Assembly: GCA_015067005.1 (NCBI GenBank)
Contig: SVNH01000003.1
Span: 124,001 to 188,000, forward strand
DNA: 64,000 nt
Direction: 5' to 3'
Source of the DNA: Ruminococcus flavefaciens
GTDB lineage: Bacteria > Bacillota > Clostridia > Oscillospirales > Ruminococcaceae
The notes under the pieces are model-generated. The model made no database searches, was not told the origin of the DNA, and was given only the letters and a program-made list of their open reading frames with translations. This document shows, piece by piece, positions 5,023 through 12,038 of the stretch (its first letter is position 1; each line of letters opens with the position of its first letter). The position numbers were made by a program, and so were the translations under genes.

Positions 5023-5058
5023 AATCTCCTCGCTACTTCTGCCGCTGGCAGCGCTTCG
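5023..5058. repeat. 36-bp direct repeat, copy 1
   Basis: This stretch begins AATCTCCTCGCTACTTC and ends GGCAGCGCTTCG. It matches 5132-5167 at 35 of 36 positions. Both copies contain the internal inverted pair TGCC/GGCA. It lies in the 550-bp gene-free stretch between sigG and the element boundary. Apart from these repeats, the 4951 hairpin and the att-like site, I see nothing else in that stretch. Confidence 0.7.
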
Positions 5059-5131: not shown

Positions 5132-5167
5132 AATCTCCTCGCTGCTTCTGCCGCTGGCAGCGCTTCG
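5132..5167. repeat. 36-bp direct repeat, copy 2, inside a hairpin
   Basis: Second copy of the repeat at 5023-5058 (one base differs). It is nested in a larger inverted repeat: AATAATCTCC at 5129-5138 pairs with GGAGATTATT at 5167-5176. The right arm of that hairpin overlaps the left att-like core of the guaA element. Confidence 0.7.
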
Positions 5168-5170
5168 GAG

Positions 5171-5183
5171 ATTATTCCCACTC
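5171..5183. other. Putative att core, left (attL/attR-like)
   Basis: ATTATTCCCACTC, identical over 13 bases to the guaA 3' end at 10487-10499. This would be the far junction of the integrated element, with pre-integration sequence lying to its left. Confidence 0.55.
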
Positions 5184-5201
5184 CCCAGATTTCACCTTTG
5201 A

Positions 5202-5219
5202 CTAAACAAATTTGCTTAG
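5202..5219. promoter_or_regulatory. Palindromic operator-like site near element end
   Basis: CTAAACAAATTTGCTTAG is a near-perfect 18-bp palindrome (one mismatch). A close copy, CCAAACATTTTTGCTTAG, lies at 9547-9564, and half-sites occur at 9575, 9626 and 9650 in the element's divergent promoter region. The same protein (XRE regulator, excisionase or integrase arm domain) probably binds both ends. Confidence 0.5.
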
Positions 5220-5284
5220 GCGATTTGCGTTGTGGTATCTCAGTTATACATTTTGCTCTGTATCATAATGCCCTCTGATGCCCC

Positions 5285-5314
5285 GTTATCATTTTATTAG
5301 CGCCATGATAACAA
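5285..5314. repeat. Inverted TGTTATCA-like arm-site pair near left end
   Basis: GTTATCA (5285-5291) and TGATAACA (5306-5313) form a perfect 7-bp inverted repeat. The same octamer occurs twice as a direct repeat, 11 bp apart, at 10412-10430 beside the other att-like core. The pairing of such motifs at both ends suggests integrase arm-type sites. Confidence 0.4.
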
Positions 5315-5404
5315 AAACCAGCGACTTATAGGAGAATATGTGCCCGGTGGCTTGCTCCTTATTTGGTATTATAGCGCAGATTGGGGGAGTTGTCAAGTGC
5401 TTTT

Positions 5405-7411
5405 TCACACTAACGGTAATTCAAGAATCTCTTTTATTATTTCAAATAGCTCTATAAAAGAATCAAAATTGAAATTATCAAAAGGTGGTTCTTTATTAAG
5501 TATTCTCTGTGCAAACTCCATTTTGGGCAACGCTAAATTGACATCAGCATTATCAAAGTGAGTTATTCTTTCACCGGAAGTACCATCAATAATATTTATT
5601 TTATCTTTTCCACACTTCTCTTTTCGATCGCAGTTCAAGCAATGAATACTATTTATTCCTCTTTTATCAAATTCATTTCCCATAAATAATCTGCGGGATA
5701 TTCCTCCTATAGATACTTCTGTTTTTATTTCATCATCAGTATAGTAATGCTCAATGCTTATTAATGGTGTTTCTGTTCTGTGTTGTGGAATTGGCAATAG
5801 GATAGAATAAACATTATTTCCCCAATTCTTATATCTGTTAGTTGAGCTTTTAAGCTTTTTTGTTGCATTGGGTTCATCGTCGTCAGCAATAAAAATGATT
5901 TTTTGATTCCTTTTGATTTTCGATAAGCTCTCACATATTGTACAAAGTGTAGACCACCCCATTTCCATTTGAAGTGGAGAATCTTTGTATTTATCACCAG
6001 TAGGATCGTATTCATATAACTCAAAATCCATATCTGAAAAAAGTGATTCATTCTCTGACTTAAATGATAAAGCATTATATGCTGCTTTAATATGTCTCCA
6101 ATCAGTTGAACCTTCAGTTATGATTAGAGGCTTAGTATTAGTGGCGTCTTGTATAGTTTTTTGTACCTCTTTTTGATAGTGCTGAGTTTCCGTCATATAA
6201 TCAAAAGCTCGTTGGAATTCTGAAAATGATTCCGCTGTAATTTGAGTACCGGTTGGTAATTGATATATTTCAAAGCCATCATCATCAAATTCATTTTTCA
6301 TTCCTAATAAAAACAGTGGAGAATGAGTTGTAATAACAAATTGTACTTTAGGAAACAGCTTTATAAGTTTTGGCAACACCTCTTTCTGCATAGAACCGTG
6401 AAGATGAAGTTCAATTTCATCTATAATGACAATTCCTGTTATATTTTCAAGATGTATGCTATTATTGATTTCAAGTTTATCTGCATACTTAACTATCGTT
6501 GAAAACATATTAAATAAGGCTATTTCTCCTGTAGATAAAGCATCCAGCTGTGGAGTTATAAGCTCATTATTGCTAACTTTTTTGATATTGAACCTTGATC
6601 CGCTATTGTTTCGTACATTTAAATCGAAGTACACCTCTTGTTTCATAATCTGACTCATTATGCGTTCAATTTGCTTTCTACAATCACCTAAAGCAATATA
6701 ATTGTTTATATTGCCACTTGGAAAATGAGTTAAGTGAAAGCCTTCGCTATCATAATAAATATCTGCTCTTGAATCAACAATAAGATCTAAAAGCCATTGA
6801 AGATTAGTTGCAGTAACATTATTCACACTTATAGGATTGTCAAGAGTTCCATTATAATGAGGAGTTGTATAAGGATGTTCGTAATCTGATAAATCATAAT
6901 ACTTTTCGCCCATCCAGTTTGGCTTTTCATATCGATTCGGACCAAAATATGCAAAGACGCTCTCTGAGAAGGTCTTCTCTGCTTTTTCCTTTGTAATAGA
7001 TGTTAGTTTTACATTATCCTTATTTCCCCAAGAACCAAAAAACGGAGGTTGCTCACATTTTTCTTTAAATTCCTCAAAAGATAGTTTTCCGCACTTAAAA
7101 ATATAGTCTACGGAATCACTATACTGAATATATGAATATAAGTACTGGCTTCCAAATGTAATCTGTGTAGGACTAATAACTTTATAGTATTGATACGCAT
7201 TTCTAGCGTCTGATTTTCGTACATTAGTAAAAGCATTTCCCGCCATTTCATAAAAGGAGTCTACGATATTAGATAATAATGTTGATTTACCGCTTCCATT
7301 TTCACCAACTAGTATTATTGGTTTAGGGGATTCATCATCGTTGAAGGGCATATTGATAGACACTTCTTTAAGCGGACCAACATTTTTATAGACCATCTTT
7401 TTCAGATACAT
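5405..7411 (-). CDS. SMC/RecF-type ATPase fused to TOPRIM nuclease domain (OLD/PARIS-like)
   Basis: 668 residues from the ATG at 7409-7411 (AGGAGG seven bases upstream). Walker A is GENGSGKST near residue 37. An ABC-type signature LSTGEIALFN lies near residue 300 and Walker B VIIDEIELHLH near 335, followed by the H-loop region FVITTHSPLFLLG. The C-terminal third has PLIITEGSTDWRHIKAA and IIFIADDDEPN, the acidic signature of a TOPRIM nuclease, then ISIEHYYTDDE and a Cys cluster CLNCDRKEKC that may bind zinc. This layout is that of OLD-family and fused PARIS-like anti-phage nucleases. The gene is visibly more AT-rich than its neighbours, a sign of transfer. It has its own promoter (7491-7519). 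Defence is inference from family and context. Confidence 0.75.
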   Translation of the reverse strand: MYLKKMVYKNVGPLKEVSINMPFNDDESPKPIILVGENGSGKSTLLSNIVDSFYEMAGNAFTNVRKSDARNAYQYYKVISPTQITFGSQYLYSYIQYSDSVDYIFKCGKLSFEEFKEKCEQPPFFGSWGNKDNVKLTSITKEKAEKTFSESVFAYFGPNRYEKPNWMGEKYYDLSDYEHPYTTPHYNGTLDNPISVNNVTATNLQWLLDLIVDSRADIYYDSEGFHLTHFPSGNINNYIALGDCRKQIERIMSQIMKQEVYFDLNVRNNSGSRFNIKKVSNNELITPQLDALSTGEIALFNMFSTIVKYADKLEINNSIHLENITGIVIIDEIELHLHGSMQKEVLPKLIKLFPKVQFVITTHSPLFLLGMKNEFDDDGFEIYQLPTGTQITAESFSEFQRAFDYMTETQHYQKEVQKTIQDATNTKPLIITEGSTDWRHIKAAYNALSFKSENESLFSDMDFELYEYDPTGDKYKDSPLQMEMGWSTLCTICESLSKIKRNQKIIFIADDDEPNATKKLKSSTNRYKNWGNNVYSILLPIPQHRTETPLISIEHYYTDDEIKTEVSIGGISRRLFMGNEFDKRGINSIHCLNCDRKEKCGKDKINIIDGTSGERITHFDNADVNLALPKMEFAQRILNKEPPFDNFNFDSFIELFEIIKEILELPLV

Positions 7412-7452
7412 TTTAACTCCTCCTTGTGCTTTTGAATAACAAACAGGCAAAA

Positions 7453-7526
7453 AATTCCCCTGAAACAACACAGTTATCCAGTATATCTACATTATACCAC
7501 GATACCCGTATTATTTCAAGGGAATT
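7453..7526. promoter_or_regulatory. Inverted repeat flanking the ATPase-TOPRIM promoter
   Basis: AATTCCCCTGAAA (7453-7465) and TTTCAAGGGAATT (7514-7526) match as inverted repeats at 12 of 13 positions. One arm contains the -35 box and the other lies in the leader, so it could be an operator pair or a leader hairpin controlling the ATPase gene. Confidence 0.4.
7491..7519 (-). promoter_or_regulatory. Promoter of the ATPase-TOPRIM gene
   Basis: On the minus strand: TTGAAA (7519-7514), a 17-base spacer and TATAAT (7496-7491), about 80 bases before the ATG. It lies between the DUF262-HNH stop and the ATPase start, so the ATPase need not depend on the upstream integrase operon. Confidence 0.7.
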
Positions 7527-7541
7527 CGCCTATATATTCTA

Positions 7542-8636
7542 TTATTCCTGCCCCGACTTCTTCAAATTACAATCCCTGCACAGCATCTGCAAGTTCTCCG
7601 GAACGGTCTTGCCACCTGCGTGCCAGGGTGTGATATGATCTGCGTGCATCTTATCGAAATCGAAGTGCTTTTTACATATCGGGCAGATGCCTTGCTGCTG
7701 TTCGTAGGCTGTGCGAGTATCCTCGTCATCGAACTGTCGCAGGCTCAGGAATTTTTCTTTTCCAGTCAGAAGATACTCATATACACCGCTTTTCTTGGTG
7801 ACTTCCTTGTCCGCCATGAGAGCGGTGATTTTTGTCTCCAAAGCCGCAGGATCAAGGGCATCGCTCTTATGCTCATGGTAGAGTCGTCCCCAATCCAGCC
7901 CCTTCATCTCTTTGCGCCACTTCGGGAAAATGGTATTCACCCAGTTAATGACGGTCTGGAAATACATCCATAAAGGAGCGGCGGTGCTGTCGTGTTGATG
8001 CTCGGACATATAGAGGTCAACCGACTTGCCCTCTGGCAGAGCGATCCACTCAATAGCGGTTTCGAGGTATTCCTGGCGTATCATCTTGCCTGACAGGAGC
8101 TTATCTCCGATCTTGACGGCAGCGCAGCCGTTCTTGCTGAAATACCGCTTTGCATCCGACACCCAAGAACCTGAGTATACGGCATTGCGAAGTTCCTGGT
8201 CGGAGAGCTGCACACCTGCAATATTGATCGTTCTGAACCAGTCGAGCTTTTCCTTATCGTTGCCCGTGCAGATGTAGATCATGAGCTTGTAGTCGAGAAT
8301 CTGTTTCTGTTCCGTTGCGGTCAGGCTGTGAAAATAGCGGTTACCGATAGAAAAATCTCCGCTCACATACTGACACAGGCTGATCGTGCGCTGCTGTCCG
8401 TCCAATAGCTCAAATGTACCGTCATCAGTCGCACACCAGTACATGACATTCAGCGGAAAGCCTTTCATGACGGTATCGAGTACGGCATCACGCTCCTTCT
8501 GCCCATAGACAAACTCACGCTGAAACGCAGGACGGATATTCAGCTTACATCCGTAGCCGGTAACGCCTTTTTCCGCACTATCCTGATAGCCCTCTGCAAC
8601 GTCACGAACGGTAATCTCTTTCAGTTCGATTTTCAT
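7542..8636 (-). CDS. DUF262 protein with C-terminal HNH endonuclease
   Basis: 364 residues. The N-terminal DUF262 (ParB/GmrS-like) domain has RPAFQREFVYGQ near residue 34 and the hallmark LLDGQQRTISL near residue 77. The C-terminus carries an HNH nuclease: CPICKKHFDF, MHADHITPWHAGG and LQMLCRDCNLKK, with two CxxC pairs for zinc. DUF262 plus HNH is the build of GmrSD-type (type IV) restriction enzymes and related defence proteins, in which DUF262 uses a nucleotide. Many relatives are fused to DUF1524 instead, so this is a variant. The start ATG lies 15 bp after the stop of the truncated integrase, so the cassette joins the integrase operon. It is richer in G+C than the ATPase gene next to it, pointing to a mosaic origin. 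Confidence 0.8.
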   Translation of the reverse strand: MKIELKEITVRDVAEGYQDSAEKGVTGYGCKLNIRPAFQREFVYGQKERDAVLDTVMKGFPLNVMYWCATDDGTFELLDGQQRTISLCQYVSGDFSIGNRYFHSLTATEQKQILDYKLMIYICTGNDKEKLDWFRTINIAGVQLSDQELRNAVYSGSWVSDAKRYFSKNGCAAVKIGDKLLSGKMIRQEYLETAIEWIALPEGKSVDLYMSEHQHDSTAAPLWMYFQTVINWVNTIFPKWRKEMKGLDWGRLYHEHKSDALDPAALETKITALMADKEVTKKSGVYEYLLTGKEKFLSLRQFDDEDTRTAYEQQQGICPICKKHFDFDKMHADHITPWHAGGKTVPENLQMLCRDCNLKKSGQE

Positions 8637-8650
8637 AATATCACTTCTTT

Positions 8651-9253
8651 CTACGAATCAATATACGTTTGAATCTCAAAGGCATAGAACGAGATAGGCT
8701 TGTCCATCATGACTTCGGAGAACTGCATATACTCGTCCTTCGTCCAGAAGTTCATCTCTTTGGCATTCTTCACGCCAATGCTTCCTGCTTTGGCTGCGGG
8801 ATTGGTACTCAGGTCATAGTATCGGACAGCATGATTGAAGATACAAGAGAGCTGATTGTGCAGATTTTTCAGGTAGGTCTCCGAATAGGGCTTGCCGTTT
8901 TTGTCACGGTGACGCAAAAGCTCATTCTGCCACGTCAGCACGTCTCTTGCCTGGATGTCCTTCATGGACTTCTCACCGAAATAGGGCAGTATCTTCGACT
9001 TGATGACACAAGCCTTATGCTCCCAGGTGTTCTGCTTCAAACGGGCTTTCATATCCTGCTCATACAGCTTGTAGAAGTCCTTGAACAGCATATCGAGGTC
9101 GCCGCCCTGCTGGAGAAGAAATCTGCGCTCCCAATCCTGAGCCTCACGCTTTGTCTTGAAGCCGCGCTTGCACTTCTGCTTGCGCTGTCCCTGCCAGTCA
9201 TCACAGCGTGTCATAACATACCAAGTGCCGTTTTTGTCCTTATATACGGACAT
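8651..9253 (-). pseudogene. int: Tyrosine integrase, truncated before the catalytic domain
   Basis: 200 residues, against about 380-400 for intact relatives. The arm-DNA-binding start (KDKNGTWYVMTRCDDWQGQRK) and the SAM-like core-binding domain (about residues 60-165, with LKNLHNQLSCIFNHAVRYY) are intact. The frame stops just as the catalytic domain should begin: after DKPISFYAFE comes IQTYIDS and a stop. The R...HxxR...Y residues are absent, and I find no remnant of them downstream; the DUF262-HNH gene begins there instead. The start overlaps the excisionase-like stop as TGATG, so the two are translationally coupled. The product may still bind arm sites without recombining. Confidence 0.8.
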
Positions 9254-9468
9254 CAGTCCTCACCCTCTTTCTTTTCAGGTGCTTTCACCGGGCGTTCAGC
9301 CGAGTACACTCTCTCGTTGAAATACTCACGGTTCACTCTGCCTGTGATGGTGATGTAGCCCTTTGCGTCAAGCTCCTCATTGAGCTGCTTGATGATCTTG
9401 TATGCATACGGAACGGAGATCTCCATGATCTCTGCCAGTTCCTCTGCACGGATAAATTTTTCTGACAT
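9253..9468 (-). CDS. Excisionase-like winged-helix DNA-binding protein
   Basis: 71 residues from the ATG at 9466-9468 (AAAGGG upstream). FIRAEELAEIMEISVPYAYKIIKQLNEEL is a helix-turn-helix of the kind in excisionases and small MerR-like proteins, followed by a basic wing (GYITITGRVNREYF) and a charged tail. It is directly upstream of, and overlaps, the integrase, as excisionase genes of Gram-positive integrative elements commonly do. The promoter is at 9569-9597. The role as excision factor is inferred from size, fold pattern and position. Confidence 0.65.
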   Translation of the reverse strand: MSEKFIRAEELAEIMEISVPYAYKIIKQLNEELDAKGYITITGRVNREYFNERVYSAERPVKAPEKKEGED

Positions 9469-9546
9469 AGTAGTCAACCCTTTCTTAAAATATTGTTCTG
9501 TGTGATATCGGGCGCATTTGCGTATCCGATCAGCAAAATTCTCTAT

Positions 9547-9658
9547 CCAAACATTTTTGCTTAGTCTTATTATACTAAACATTTTTGTTTTTGTCAACCC
9601 CTAAATCGAAATTTTTCTAAATTTTTTTGTTTAGTATCTATTGACTATCCTAAACAAA
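9547..9658. promoter_or_regulatory. Operator-like repeats of the divergent control region
   Basis: Sites: CCAAACATTTTTGCTTAG (9547-9564), CTAAACATT (9575-9583), TTTGTTTAG (9626-9634) and CTAAACAAA (9650-9658). The last two form an inverted repeat around the -35 box of the plus-strand promoter, the first two one over the minus-strand -10. This is the arrangement of a lysogeny-type switch between an integrase operon and its regulator. Confidence 0.6.
9569..9597 (-). promoter_or_regulatory. Promoter of the excisionase/integrase operon
   Basis: Minus strand: TTGACA (9597-9592), 17 bases, TATAAT (9574-9569), a perfect consensus. CTAAACA-type half-sites cover the -10 region and spacer (9547-9564, 9575-9583), suggesting repression by a protein that binds these repeats. 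Confidence 0.8.
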
Positions 9659-9669
9659 TATGTTATAAT
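9641..9669 (+). promoter_or_regulatory. Promoter of the small-ORF/XRE-regulator unit
   Basis: TTGACT (9641-9646), 17-base spacer, TATAAT (9664-9669). Operator-like inverted repeats TTTGTTTAG and CTAAACAAA flank the -35 box. Confidence 0.8.
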
Positions 9670-9697
9670 GGATGAAAACACTTATTAGGAGTTAAAT

Positions 9698-9877
9698 ATG
9701 AGTAAATGTGTTTGTCACCATATTCCAAATGATGGGGTTTTTAAATTGGGTAAAGAATATGAATACCAATACGGCATAGACTGCATATGTGTTCATGACG
9801 ATAATGGGAAACGTATCATTTTTGATGAAATTACGTTTCTCTGGTATTTTGCCAAACAGAACATAAATAAGGAGTGA
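9698..9877 (+). CDS. Small hypothetical protein of the element (59 aa)
   Basis: The ATG at 9698 has AGGAG seven bases upstream and follows a consensus promoter by about 28 bases. The frame ends at 9877, inside the ribosome-site region of the next gene. The protein begins MSKCVCHHIPNDGVFKLGKEYEYQ and is otherwise mixed polar, with three Cys and two His near the ends. No family recognised. Position (first gene of the regulator operon, seven bases before the XRE gene) suggests a control or accessory role. Confidence 0.6.
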   Translation: MSKCVCHHIPNDGVFKLGKEYEYQYGIDCICVHDDNGKRIIFDEITFLWYFAKQNINKE

Positions 9878-9883
9878 ACCACC

Positions 9884-10375
9884 ATGAGCATTATCGGAGA
9901 TAAGATACACCGCATTCGTGATTTTAGAGGAATGACGCAGAAACAGCTCGGTATGGCTGTCGGCTTTGACGAGAAATCTGCCGATGTCCGCATCGCACAG
10001 TATGAATCAGGCACCCGCACACCCAAGCAGGCACTTGTGGAACAGCTTGCCGAGGTGCTTGATGTGAACCCTCGCTTTCTCGCCGATGATGAGATCCTCG
10101 GAGCTGAGGGCGTTATGATGATGCTCTTTGAGCTTGACGAGCATTACCCGATCAGCATTGAAGACTGCGAGGACGAGGACGGCAACAGAAGAAAGGGCAT
10201 TGTTTTCGGCTCTATCCTGATGACTGACCTCCTTTCTGAGTGGCAGAGACGAAAAAAAGACCTTGCTGACGGTAAGATCAGCAAGGCCGAATATACAGAA
10301 TGGAAGCTTAACTGGCCGAAAACGACCGATGATTGCGGAAAGCATGAACCTGCGAAAGAGTGGCGCAACCTGTAA
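9884..10375 (+). CDS. XRE-family transcriptional regulator
   Basis: 163 residues; the ATG at 9884 has AAGGAG upstream. Residues 1-65 form a Cro/C1 helix-turn-helix: IHRIRDFRGMTQKQLGMAVGF, then IAQYESGTRTPKQALVEQLAEVL and NPRFLADD. The C-terminal 95 residues are charged (EDCEDEDGNRRKG) with no recognised fold and may mediate multimerisation. It is transcribed away from the excisionase/integrase operon across a shared region full of palindromic half-sites, so it is the likely repressor of both promoters. It lies 110 bp from the guaA end. Confidence 0.8.
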   Translation: MSIIGDKIHRIRDFRGMTQKQLGMAVGFDEKSADVRIAQYESGTRTPKQALVEQLAEVLDVNPRFLADDEILGAEGVMMMLFELDEHYPISIEDCEDEDGNRRKGIVFGSILMTDLLSEWQRRKKDLADGKISKAEYTEWKLNWPKTTDDCGKHEPAKEWRNL

Positions 10376-10411
10376 GCCACTTGGTACGCAGAACATTTCC
10401 GCTTCGCTCCC

Positions 10412-10430
10412 TGTTATCAAATTGTTATCA
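10412..10430. repeat. Tandem TGTTATCA motifs, putative integrase arm sites
   Basis: TGTTATCA at 10412-10419 and again at 10423-10430, 11 bp apart (one helical turn). The motif also occurs at 5306-5313 in inverse orientation near the opposite att-like core. Spacing and placement fit arm-type binding sites. Confidence 0.4.
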
Positions 10431-10449
10431 CTGAGATTTTAAGGCTTCG

Positions 10450-10473
10450 GAAATGGCGTATCTACGCCGTTTC
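10450..10473. terminator. Hairpin between XRE gene and guaA
   Basis: GAAATGGCGTA (10450-10460) pairs with TACGCCGTTTC (10463-10473) with one mismatch and a 2-base gap. It has no strong U-tract on either strand, so it may be a weak terminator of the convergent genes or an element-end structure. Confidence 0.35.
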
Positions 10474-10486
10474 TGAGGTCTTATTT

Positions 10487-10499
10487 ATTATTCCCACTC
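10487..10499. other. Putative att core, right (guaA 3' end)
   Basis: ATTATTCCCACTC; on the minus strand these are guaA codons Glu-Trp-Glu, the stop TAA and one more base. Identical to 5171-5183. Integration here keeps guaA intact. Confidence 0.55.
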
Positions 10500-12038
10500 G
10501 ACAGTTCCCGGAGGCTTTGAAGTAATGTCGTACACTACTCGGTTTACGTGCTCGACCTCATTACAGAGACGATTTGAAACTCTCGCAAGAACATCATAAG
10601 GGATACGTGCCCAGTCGGCAGTCATAAAGTCATCGGTTGTAACTGCGCGGATAGCGATCAGGTGATCGTATGTACGGTGATCGCCCATAACTCCGACAGT
10701 GCGTACATCCGGAAGAACAGCAAAAAACTGTCTGAGTTCACTCTCAATGCCGCTCTTTCTTATTTCATCGCGGAAAACAGCATCTGCTTCCTGAAGCACT
10801 TTTATCTTCTCTTCGGTTATCTCTCCGATGATACGGACACCGAGTCCCGGACCCGGGAATGGCTGTCTCCAAACAAGGTCATGCGGTATGCCAAGCTTTT
10901 CGCCAACTGCTCTTACCTCGTCCTTGAAGAGGTCGCCAAGAGGCTCAATAACTCCGTCGAACTTGATGTCATCAGGCATTTTGACCATGTTATGGTGTGT
11001 TTTGATAACGGCTGTACTGCCCTGACCTGCTTTATTGCCCTTTCCGGACTCAATACGGTCAGGATATATAGTTCCCTGTGCAAAGAAGCCGTCTGCTCCC
11101 TGTTCACGGATCTTATCCCAGAACACGTTATAGAACTCAGTGCCGATGATCTTTCTCTTCTGCTCGGGATCTTTTACGCCTTTAAGGGCTGCAAGAAATT
11201 TTTCCTGACAATTAACACGAACAAAATTCATATCGAACAGCTTTGTGAATGTCTCCTCAACAAAATTGCCCTCATCTTTACGCATAAGTCCCTGATCCAC
11301 AAAGACGCAGGTAAGCTGCTTGCCTACTGCACGGCTGAGAAGTCCGGCTGCAACGGATGAATCAACACCTCCGGAAAGTCCGAGAATGACCTTCTTATCG
11401 CCTATCTGTTCACGCAGCTTTGCAACAGTTGTCTCAATGAAATCGTCCATTTTCCAGTCTCCGTTGAAGCCGCAGACTTCATAGAGGAAGTTATGGAGTA
11501 TCTCCTTGCCGAACTGGCTGTGAGTTACCTCAGGATGGAACTGCACTGCATAAAGCTTTCTCTCAGGACATTCAAATGCAGCTATCGGACAATCCTCGGA
11601 ATGAGCCTTGCCGCTGAAGCCCTCCGGAAGCTTGCTGACAAAATCAGTATGGCTCATCCAGACGATGCTCTTTTCCGGAACATCCTTAAATAGTTTGCCG
11701 CCATTCTGCTCTATCTCTATCTTGCCGTATTCGCTCTTGGTACAGCTCTCAACAGTTCCTCCGAGGGTATAAGCCATAAGCTGACATCCGTAGCAGATAC
11801 CCAGAGTCGGGATACCGAGATCAAAATACTCTTTTGCGATATGCGGTGAAGCTTCGTCGTAAACGCTGTTAGGACCGCCTGTAAAGATAACGCCCATAGG
11901 ATCAAGTGCTTTGATCTCTTCGAGAGGGGTATCAAATCTCTTGATCTCACAGTAAACGCCGCACTCACGGACTCTTCTTGCTATAAGCTGGTTATACTGA
12001 CCGCCGAAATCAAGAACGATACAAAGCTGATTTGCCAT
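10488..12038 (-). CDS. guaA: GMP synthase (glutamine-hydrolysing)
   Basis: 516 residues, the usual length. It converts XMP to GMP using glutamine and ATP. The class I amidotransferase half has the nucleophile motif [15 protein letters not shown] near residue 80 and the His/Glu pair in [11 protein letters not shown] near 170. The ATP-pyrophosphatase half has the PP-loop [11 protein letters not shown] near 230, and the C-terminal dimerisation domain ends in [11 protein letters not shown] chose the ATG at 12036-12038 because AGGAGG lies five bases upstream; the longer frame has no such signal. The 3' end serves as the attachment site of the element at 5171-10499. The promoter is at 12100-12128. 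Confidence 0.95.

What the first reader, a model, noticed from the sequence alone, without database searches (positions are those of the whole stretch)
5171..10499. Defence-type cargo in a small element integrated at the 3' end of guaA
A 13-bp repeat (ATTATTCCCACTC) flanks 5.3 kb, and one copy is exactly the last codons and stop of guaA, a known tyrosine-integrase target. The interior has excisionase-like and integrase remains, a divergent repressor unit, and two genes built like anti-phage nucleases (ATPase-TOPRIM and DUF262-HNH). Arm-like TGTTATCA motifs lie near both ends. A decayed carrier with intact cargo suggests the cargo is kept for the host.
Basis: partly seen in the sequence, partly recalled or inferred. 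Interest (0 to 1): 0.78.

Follow-up and report, generated by a model that had tools for sequence, protein, structure and literature searches.

The report
Stranded element with orphan restriction nuclease
A 5.3-kb remnant of a mobile element sits at the end of the guaA gene of a bacterium that likely belongs to Ruminococcus; a single deletion likely removed its mobility genes together with the DNA methylase that sits beside its restriction-type nuclease in relatives, leaving the nuclease without a partner, next to a second defence-type gene, and predicted to be driven by the element's own excision switch.

Summary
5184-10486 is an element integrated at the 3' end of guaA: in six other genomes of the genus the sequence left of 5171 follows guaA directly, without gaps, and sisters with intact 365-aa integrases occupy guaA elsewhere. 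Two arm motifs near each end lie within 1 nt of the offsets in an intact sister. Out of frame, 33 bp (8641-8673) read FKRILIRRKK-stop, the C-terminus of the EcoRI-family adenine methylase found directly upstream of this DUF262-HNH nuclease in 9 of 10 relatives read. One deletion therefore likely took the integrase catalytic half, the mobilisation genes and the methylase; no match to that methylase remains in the genome. The nuclease now follows xis and int' behind a 12-of-12 consensus promoter with operator-like repeats. The last gene fuses a PtuA-type ATPase to a retron I-C-type TOPRIM domain; one sister has Thoeris at that place. This is a cis-mobilisable-type remnant with an orphan nuclease. 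Activity, toxicity and regulation are untested.

The parts
5171..5183 (-). distal attachment core (attR), GAGTGGGAATAAT read on the minus strand
   Evidence: empty-site alignment
10487..10499 (-). guaA-proximal attachment core (attL), last codons and stop of guaA
5184..10486 (.). integrated element
   Evidence: absent from six gapless empty sites; sister elements at guaA
5202..5219 (.). palindrome CTAAACAAATTTGCTTAG next to attR, same motif as the operator-like sites at 9547-9667
5285..5312 (.). distal arm-type motifs GTTATCA (5285) and TGATAAC (5306)
   Evidence: within 1 nt of the offsets in intact sister L166
5368..5396 (-). 12 of 12 consensus promoter pointing out of the element, in a distal module shared with L127, L128, L166, G082 and G002
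5405..7411 (-). ATPase-TOPRIM, 668 aa: PtuA-type ATPase with a C-terminal half that matches retron I-C TOPRIM (an upstream GTG start at 7471 would give 688 aa)
   Evidence: motifs
7491..7519 (-). 11 of 12 promoter before the ATPase-TOPRIM, in a segment shared with sister L161
7542..8636 (-). DUF262 (GmrSD_N)-HNH nuclease, 364 aa, full length, HNH and DGQQR motifs present
   Evidence: (PDLC03418 E 5e-144)
8641..8673 (-). remnant of EcoRI-family methylase, FKRILIRRKK-stop, in another frame than int'; the deletion junction is at its 5' edge (about 8673)
8651..9253 (-). truncated integrase Int' (200 aa; arm-binding and SAM-like domains, no catalytic domain; homology ends at about residue 193)
9253..9471 (-). 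excisionase-like gene, overlaps int' by one base
   Evidence: (NF047858 E 3.6e-14)
9569..9597 (-). 12 of 12 consensus promoter before xis-int'-nuclease
9547..9667 (.). four operator-like palindromic sites (9547, 9575, 9617, 9650)
9641..9669 (+). 11 of 12 promoter before orf59 and the repressor-like gene
9698..9877 (+). orf59, small gene of unknown function
9884..10375 (+). HTH_3 repressor-like gene, 163 aa
   Evidence: 90-99% identical in sisters L160-L164, L166 and L167
10413..10430 (.). proximal arm-type motifs, two GTTATCA copies
10488..12038 (-). guaA, target gene

Best explanation
This is an element integrated at the 3' end of guaA that was likely once an integrative mobilisable element and was likely reduced by a single deletion of about 5-6 kb, which removed the catalytic half of its integrase, its mobilisation genes and the methylase partner of its DUF262-HNH nuclease, and left the nuclease as the third gene of the xis-int' unit, where it is predicted to be under the element's own repressor. 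Shown by calls: both attachment cores, arm motifs at both ends, the integrase break, the last ten codons of a methylase of that family at the break, an intact nuclease frame, no match to the methylase in the genome, and a consensus promoter with operator-like repeats upstream. Inferred: that one deletion did all this (rather than several steps), that the repressor binds those repeats, that the nuclease is expressed only when repression is lifted, and that this is why the cell tolerates an unpaired nuclease. The ATPase-TOPRIM gene has its own promoter-like sequence and likely acts as a separate anti-phage effector. The element likely cannot move by itself, but its ends would allow excision by an integrase of a sister element.
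For: Empty sites: 6 gapless of 8 genomes tested. Sisters at guaA with 365-aa Int: L160, L161, L164, L166, L167; L165 has the same Int but guaA is not in its locus. L161 order: HTH, Xis, Int, NikA-like, AAA_25, Mob_Pre relaxase, 134-aa ORF, a second HTH-like ORF (by eye), methylase, DUF262-HNH, ThsB, ThsB, ThsA. Methylase directly upstream of the nuclease in 9 of 10 relatives read (8 full length, 1 cut by a contig end; the tenth, a broken copy in G027:C60, has methylase pieces about 330 nt upstream). The remnant is the only one of 13,123 stop-adjacent 9-mers in the six frames of the window to reach its score of 29.3; the next is 18.4. 8 of 100 genus genomes hold a near-complete nuclease, and of these only G000 lacks the methylase. 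Promoter and operator-like sites are kept in L160, L161, L166 and L170. No terminator-like and no other promoter-like site is listed on the minus strand between 9569 and 8636. No close integrase elsewhere in the genome: the next hit has 25% identity.
Confidence: 0.72

Rival explanations
1. The DUF262-HNH enzyme is a type IV, modification-dependent nuclease that never needed the methylase; loss of the methylase is neutral and the nuclease still restricts modified phage DNA.
For: Its domains are GmrSD_N plus HNH; the fold match that spans most of the model is BrxU, and SspE matches the N-terminal part. [quoted passage not shown]
Against: In 9 of 10 relatives read a methylase lies directly upstream, overlapping or within 27 nt, which fits a protective or signalling pair. 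PADLOC files the two as MTase_II and REase_II. [quoted passage not shown]
Confidence: 0.25
2. The element is simply dead: Int', Xis and the orphan nuclease are unexpressed debris, and only the ATPase-TOPRIM gene, if any, matters.
For: Int has lost its catalytic domain and none of the element's six genes is a relaxase. A survey suggests that solitary nuclease genes may be unexpressed after loss of regulatory parts, while noting that some are transcribed (PMC3488263, section 19 read).
Against: The nuclease frame is open with its motifs, the promoter upstream is a perfect consensus kept from intact sisters, and cores and arms are kept. None of this dates the loss.
Confidence: 0.3
3. The int'-nuclease junction is an assembly chimera of two guaA elements in a mixed sample.
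For: Related guaA elements are diverse; the G055 and G071 contigs end inside int, so this locus does break assemblies.
Against: The junction lies inside a 189,623-base contig of a 28-contig, 99.67% complete genome. The methylase tail ends 4 nt before the nuclease start, as in G087, G084 and G052, so that side is a natural gene boundary.
Confidence: 0.1
4. The genes are an ordinary host operon downstream of guaA and the 13-bp repeat is chance.
For: A 13-bp direct repeat alone is weak.
Against: Gapless empty sites, sister elements with the same ends and arms, and Int/Xis genes.
Confidence: 0.01

Closest known systems
CIME (cis-mobilisable element: an integrated element that has lost integration and transfer genes but keeps attL and attR; definition read in a passage of PMC5704250)
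   Same: Both attachment cores and arms kept, integrase without catalytic domain, no relaxase, defence-type cargo left in place.
   Different: Keeps xis, the repressor-like gene and the DNA-binding half of the integrase, and its nuclease gene now follows xis-int' directly.
guaA-targeting tyrosine-integrase IMEs (streptococcal Tyr_3 family, passages of PMC5357655; ATE-1, IncP island and GIsul2 in a table passage of PMC5704250)
   Same: Tyrosine-type integrase and insertion at the 3' end of guaA.
   Different: The sister read in full (L161) is from a clostridial genome and has a Mob_Pre relaxase; I did not compare its integrase with Tyr_3 sequences.
Type II restriction-modification pair, EcoRI-family methylase with DUF262-HNH nuclease
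   Same: The nuclease and a ten-codon remnant of the methylase are there.
   Different: The methylase is gone from the locus and unmatched in the genome; the nuclease has GmrSD_N and HNH domains.
[quoted passage not shown] abstract and section 19 read)
   Same: Full-length nuclease, methylase broken, full pairs in relatives.
   Different: Here the breaking deletion also joined the nuclease to a mobile element's xis-int unit.
Septu PtuA / retron I-A ATPase, retron I-C (Ec67-type) TOPRIM, OLD nucleases, and stand-alone ATPase-TOPRIM proteins such as IbfA and HEC-04 (passages of PMC12111858)
   Different: No PtuB-type or reverse transcriptase gene among the element's six genes; 1,808 homologues among 7,996 scored candidates; none of the 25 best PADLOC models listed (of 124 hit) covers its whole length. 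I did not compare it with IbfA or HEC-04 sequences.

Membership tests
CIME | attL and attR retained | tested here: met
   two exact cores, empty sites, arm motifs within 1 nt of sister offsets
CIME | integration genes lost | tested here: met
   Int cut before its catalytic domain; next integrase of the genome is 25% identical. Xis remains.
CIME | transfer genes lost | tested here: met
   no relaxase or NikA-like match among the element's six genes; both present in sister L161
CIME | can be excised or moved when a related element supplies the enzymes | not testable with these tools
   needs an excision assay
guaA-targeting IME (sister elements) | full-length tyrosine integrase | tested here: not met
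   window Int' lacks the catalytic domain; met in L160, L161, L164, L166, L167
Type II restriction-modification system | nuclease gene present and intact | tested here: met
   364 aa, PDLC03418 E 5e-144, motifs present
Type II restriction-modification system | cognate methylase present | tested here: not met
   ten-codon remnant only; no match in own genome, the second search finding the family in 15 of 100 genus genomes
GmrSD / type IV nuclease | DUF262 (GmrSD_N) plus HNH-type nuclease | tested here: met
   PF03235 and PF01844 above cut-off
GmrSD / type IV nuclease | cuts modified DNA | not testable with these tools
   needs a cleavage assay
Septu (PtuAB) | PtuA ATPase next to PtuB HNH protein | tested here: not met
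   PtuA-type fold yes, but the neighbouring HNH protein is DUF262-HNH, whose PtuB matches are weak (E 1.4e-5 at best)
Retron I-C | reverse transcriptase fused to TOPRIM | tested here: not met
   the hits to RT-Toprim and Ec67 fusion models cover only their C-terminal TOPRIM part; the rest of the protein is an ATPase
OLD nuclease, class 1 | stand-alone gene, ABC ATPase then TOPRIM with conserved acidic residues | tested here: inconclusive
   EGxTD at 433-437 and DxD at 510-512 invariant in 54 aligned sequences; the ATPase hits listed are PtuA-type; the TOPRIM part was not searched alone as a fold

The most novel reading that the evidence does not exclude
The deletion made a new kind of defence switch: an unpaired restriction nuclease placed under a mobile element's excision repressor, silent in the integrated state and fired when DNA damage or an incoming sister element lifts repression, so that it kills the incoming DNA or the cell; meanwhile the catalytically dead Int' still binds the arm sites and blocks other guaA elements.
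Probability: 0.15. Interest if true: 0.75.

Novelty: new variant of a known kind. Interest (0 to 1): 0.45.

Why it matters
It shows how a mobile defence element can be stranded in a genome, and it catches a restriction-type nuclease that outlived its methylase, with the methylase's last codons still readable at the break. That makes an open question testable: how do cells tolerate solitary restriction nucleases, by loss of activity, by modification-dependence, or by rewired expression? It also points to a clostridial family of guaA elements with changing defence cargo (Thoeris, ATPase-TOPRIM and others) that is a good place to look for new systems.

Tried and rejected
Deletion hotspot in int: G000, G089 (L169) and G083:C58 (L131) all break at Int residues 192-195. 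I rejected a hotspot: of 66 short Int homologues with a foreign tail, break points run from residue 186 to 314; 22 lie at residue 204 (most with one related tail) and 5 in the 190s (P0244, P0250, P0258, P0270, and P0304, which looks like a frameshift).

Selection on Int': no amino-acid difference among G000, G055 and G071 over 193 codons against 29-31 nucleotide differences. I do not use it as proof of function, because intact Int genes show the same and the truncation cannot be dated.

Prevalence of guaA elements: not given as a rate, because the 20 stretches were picked for having an Int hit.

GAATTC avoidance: 37 sites in the window against 24.5 expected, so no sign of avoidance; the nuclease's target is unknown, so this says little.

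TOPRIM fold: the VIA-align and Foldseek lists were filled by the ATPase half; the TOPRIM part was not modelled alone. Foldseek gave no match at E <= 0.001 for the nuclease model.

Viral contigs: 37 relatives of the ATPase-TOPRIM query, most matching only part of the ATPase; neighbourhoods not followed.

Papers: no paper in the library holds both 'EcoRI_methylase' and 'DUF262'; ten hold DUF262, HNH, methyltransferase and restriction, of which passages of two were read. I make no wider claim that the pair is undescribed.
Full report
OBSERVATION. The 13-base repeat is exact at 5171-5183 and 10487-10499 and occurs nowhere else in the 2.79-Mb genome. The copy at 10487 is the end of guaA. By itself this is weak. 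The sequence left of 5171, searched in 100 genomes of the same genus (own included), hits 18, several directly after the guaA stop. A 183-base query joining the two flanks aligns without gaps across the junction in G010, G015, G041, G072, G097 and G098 (84-88% identity), and with 21 and 40 gaps in G063 and G074 (these 8 were chosen from the hits next to guaA). The same flank follows a distal core in G055 and G024 (on a contig other than the one with guaA) and a degenerate core in G082; these three carry an element. So 5184-10486 is an insertion.

SISTER ELEMENTS. Of the 22 read closely (L160-L181), L160, L161, L164, L166 and L167 have an uninterrupted 365-aa Int next to guaA with HTH and Xis; L165 has the same Int but no guaA in its locus; L168 (362 aa), L170 (366 aa) and L172 (364 aa) are further examples at guaA. 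L161 carries HTH, Xis, Int, a NikA-like protein, an AAA_25 protein, a Mob_Pre relaxase, a 134-aa ORF, a second HTH-like ORF (by eye), an EcoRI-family methylase (PF13651, E 4e-126), DUF262-HNH, two ThsB and one ThsA. L161 is therefore built like an integrative mobilisable element with defence cargo; its distal core is not in the stretch held. In the window element, two TGATAAC/GTTATCA motifs lie near each end and none inside; in L166 the four copies sit at the same distances from the ends to within 1 nt. Several other elements differ at one or both arms (G007, G087, G045, G043).

THE JUNCTION. Int' matches intact Int up to TTTGAGAT (residue 193 or so) and then departs. The 33 bases at 8641-8673 read, in another frame, FKRILIRRKK-stop. 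I read the DNA upstream of ten relatives of the nuclease. In nine the gene directly upstream is the methylase: full length (341-414 aa) in L161, L168, L170, G012, G087, G027, G052 and G026, and cut by a contig end in G084. It was identified by Pfam in L161 and by similarity in the others. Each ends in YxRIxI followed by basic residues. The tenth, a broken copy in G027:C60, has methylase pieces about 330 nt upstream. The window stretch is the only one of 13,123 stop-adjacent 9-mers in the six frames of the window that reaches its score; the runner-up scores 18.4 against 29.3. The distance to the nuclease start, 4 nt, is that of G087, G084 and G052. Downstream of the nuclease, DNA of L161 is 86% identical over 262 bases that run past the gene, which supports the same ancestral order, although the L161 nuclease as a whole is only 56% identical. 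The simplest history is one deletion of about 5-6 kb, judged from L170 and L161 coordinates.

NO PARTNER LEFT. The own genome has no match to the L161 methylase at E 1e-3 nor to the L170 methylase at E 1e-10, while the second search finds the family in 15 of 100 genus genomes. Nuclease matches at E <= 1e-20 occur in 11 of 100. Eight are near complete (G000, G012, G026, G027, G052, G076, G084, G087), and 7 of these 8 genomes also have the methylase, G000 being the exception. G092 has both, its nuclease cut by the contig end; G069 and G081 hold nuclease fragments without a methylase match. Conversely, 7 of the 15 methylase genomes (G002, G003, G020, G039, G045, G077, G090) have no nuclease match. 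The 221-base junction query matches across the break only in G000 among 125 genus genomes.

EXPRESSION (predicted). xis and int' overlap by one base, and the nuclease starts 14 bases after int' ends. A perfect TTGACA-17-TATAAT lies at 9597-9569 on the minus strand, kept in L160, L161, L166 and L170 but not in G055, which lacks the -10 box. Palindromic CTAAACA-type sites lie at 9547, 9575, 9617 and 9650, and one at 5202 beside attR: 5 of the 9 such sites (up to 5 mismatches) in the 64-kb window. No other promoter-like and no terminator-like site is listed on the minus strand between this promoter and the nuclease. I infer that the HTH protein represses this unit and that the nuclease now answers to it.

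VERDICT. A cis-mobilisable-type remnant, a new variant of a known kind. The historical part is well supported; the functional part is a prediction.

Noticed in passing
P0248, P0358 and similar proteins: 22 of 66 short Int homologues with a foreign tail break at residue 204, in the GIR-EGE motif, most with a related tail (DDDDKIRLNQRKPSKYKG... or a variant), as if a common insertion, perhaps a mobile intron, targets the codons next to the first catalytic arginine.
   Followed up: no
G055 (L048) against window 9550-9600: G055 lacks 28 bases between two AAAATGTTTAG repeats and so lacks the -10 box of the xis-int promoter; possibly a switch by repeat recombination.
   Followed up: no
5368-5396: A perfect consensus promoter with a downstream AAGGAG points out of the element at the distal end and is conserved in G055 (L127), G024 (L128), L166, G082 and, more loosely, G002; in a circular form it would read through attP towards xis-int.
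   Followed up: partly
9698-9877: orf59 has relatives beside guaA in G033, G078, G039 and G098, some without this element in the stretch read, while sisters L160 and L161 show no match; it may have been picked up from guaA-side DNA.
   Followed up: no
5023-5058 and 5132-5167: A 36-base unit with a CTGCCAGCGGCAG palindrome is repeated downstream of the site, and similar sequence follows guaA in other genomes of the genus; REP-like.
   Followed up: no
L169 2939-4403 (G089) and P0250, P0258: Int fragments joined at residue 195 to what looks by eye like an antisense flavodoxin gene; the same tail is on Int proteins of 82% and 70% identity to the window's, and P0250 is on 7 contigs, so it is unlikely to be a single chimera.
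   Followed up: partly
L152 1771-2900 (G012): The closest nuclease relative in the genus sample (97%) has an altered C-terminus that loses the last HNH cysteine region, beside a full-length methylase frame: the opposite loss to that in the window.
   Followed up: no
L166 14559-18099: Sister element with a mad3-like ATPase and a viperin-like protein as cargo.
   Followed up: no
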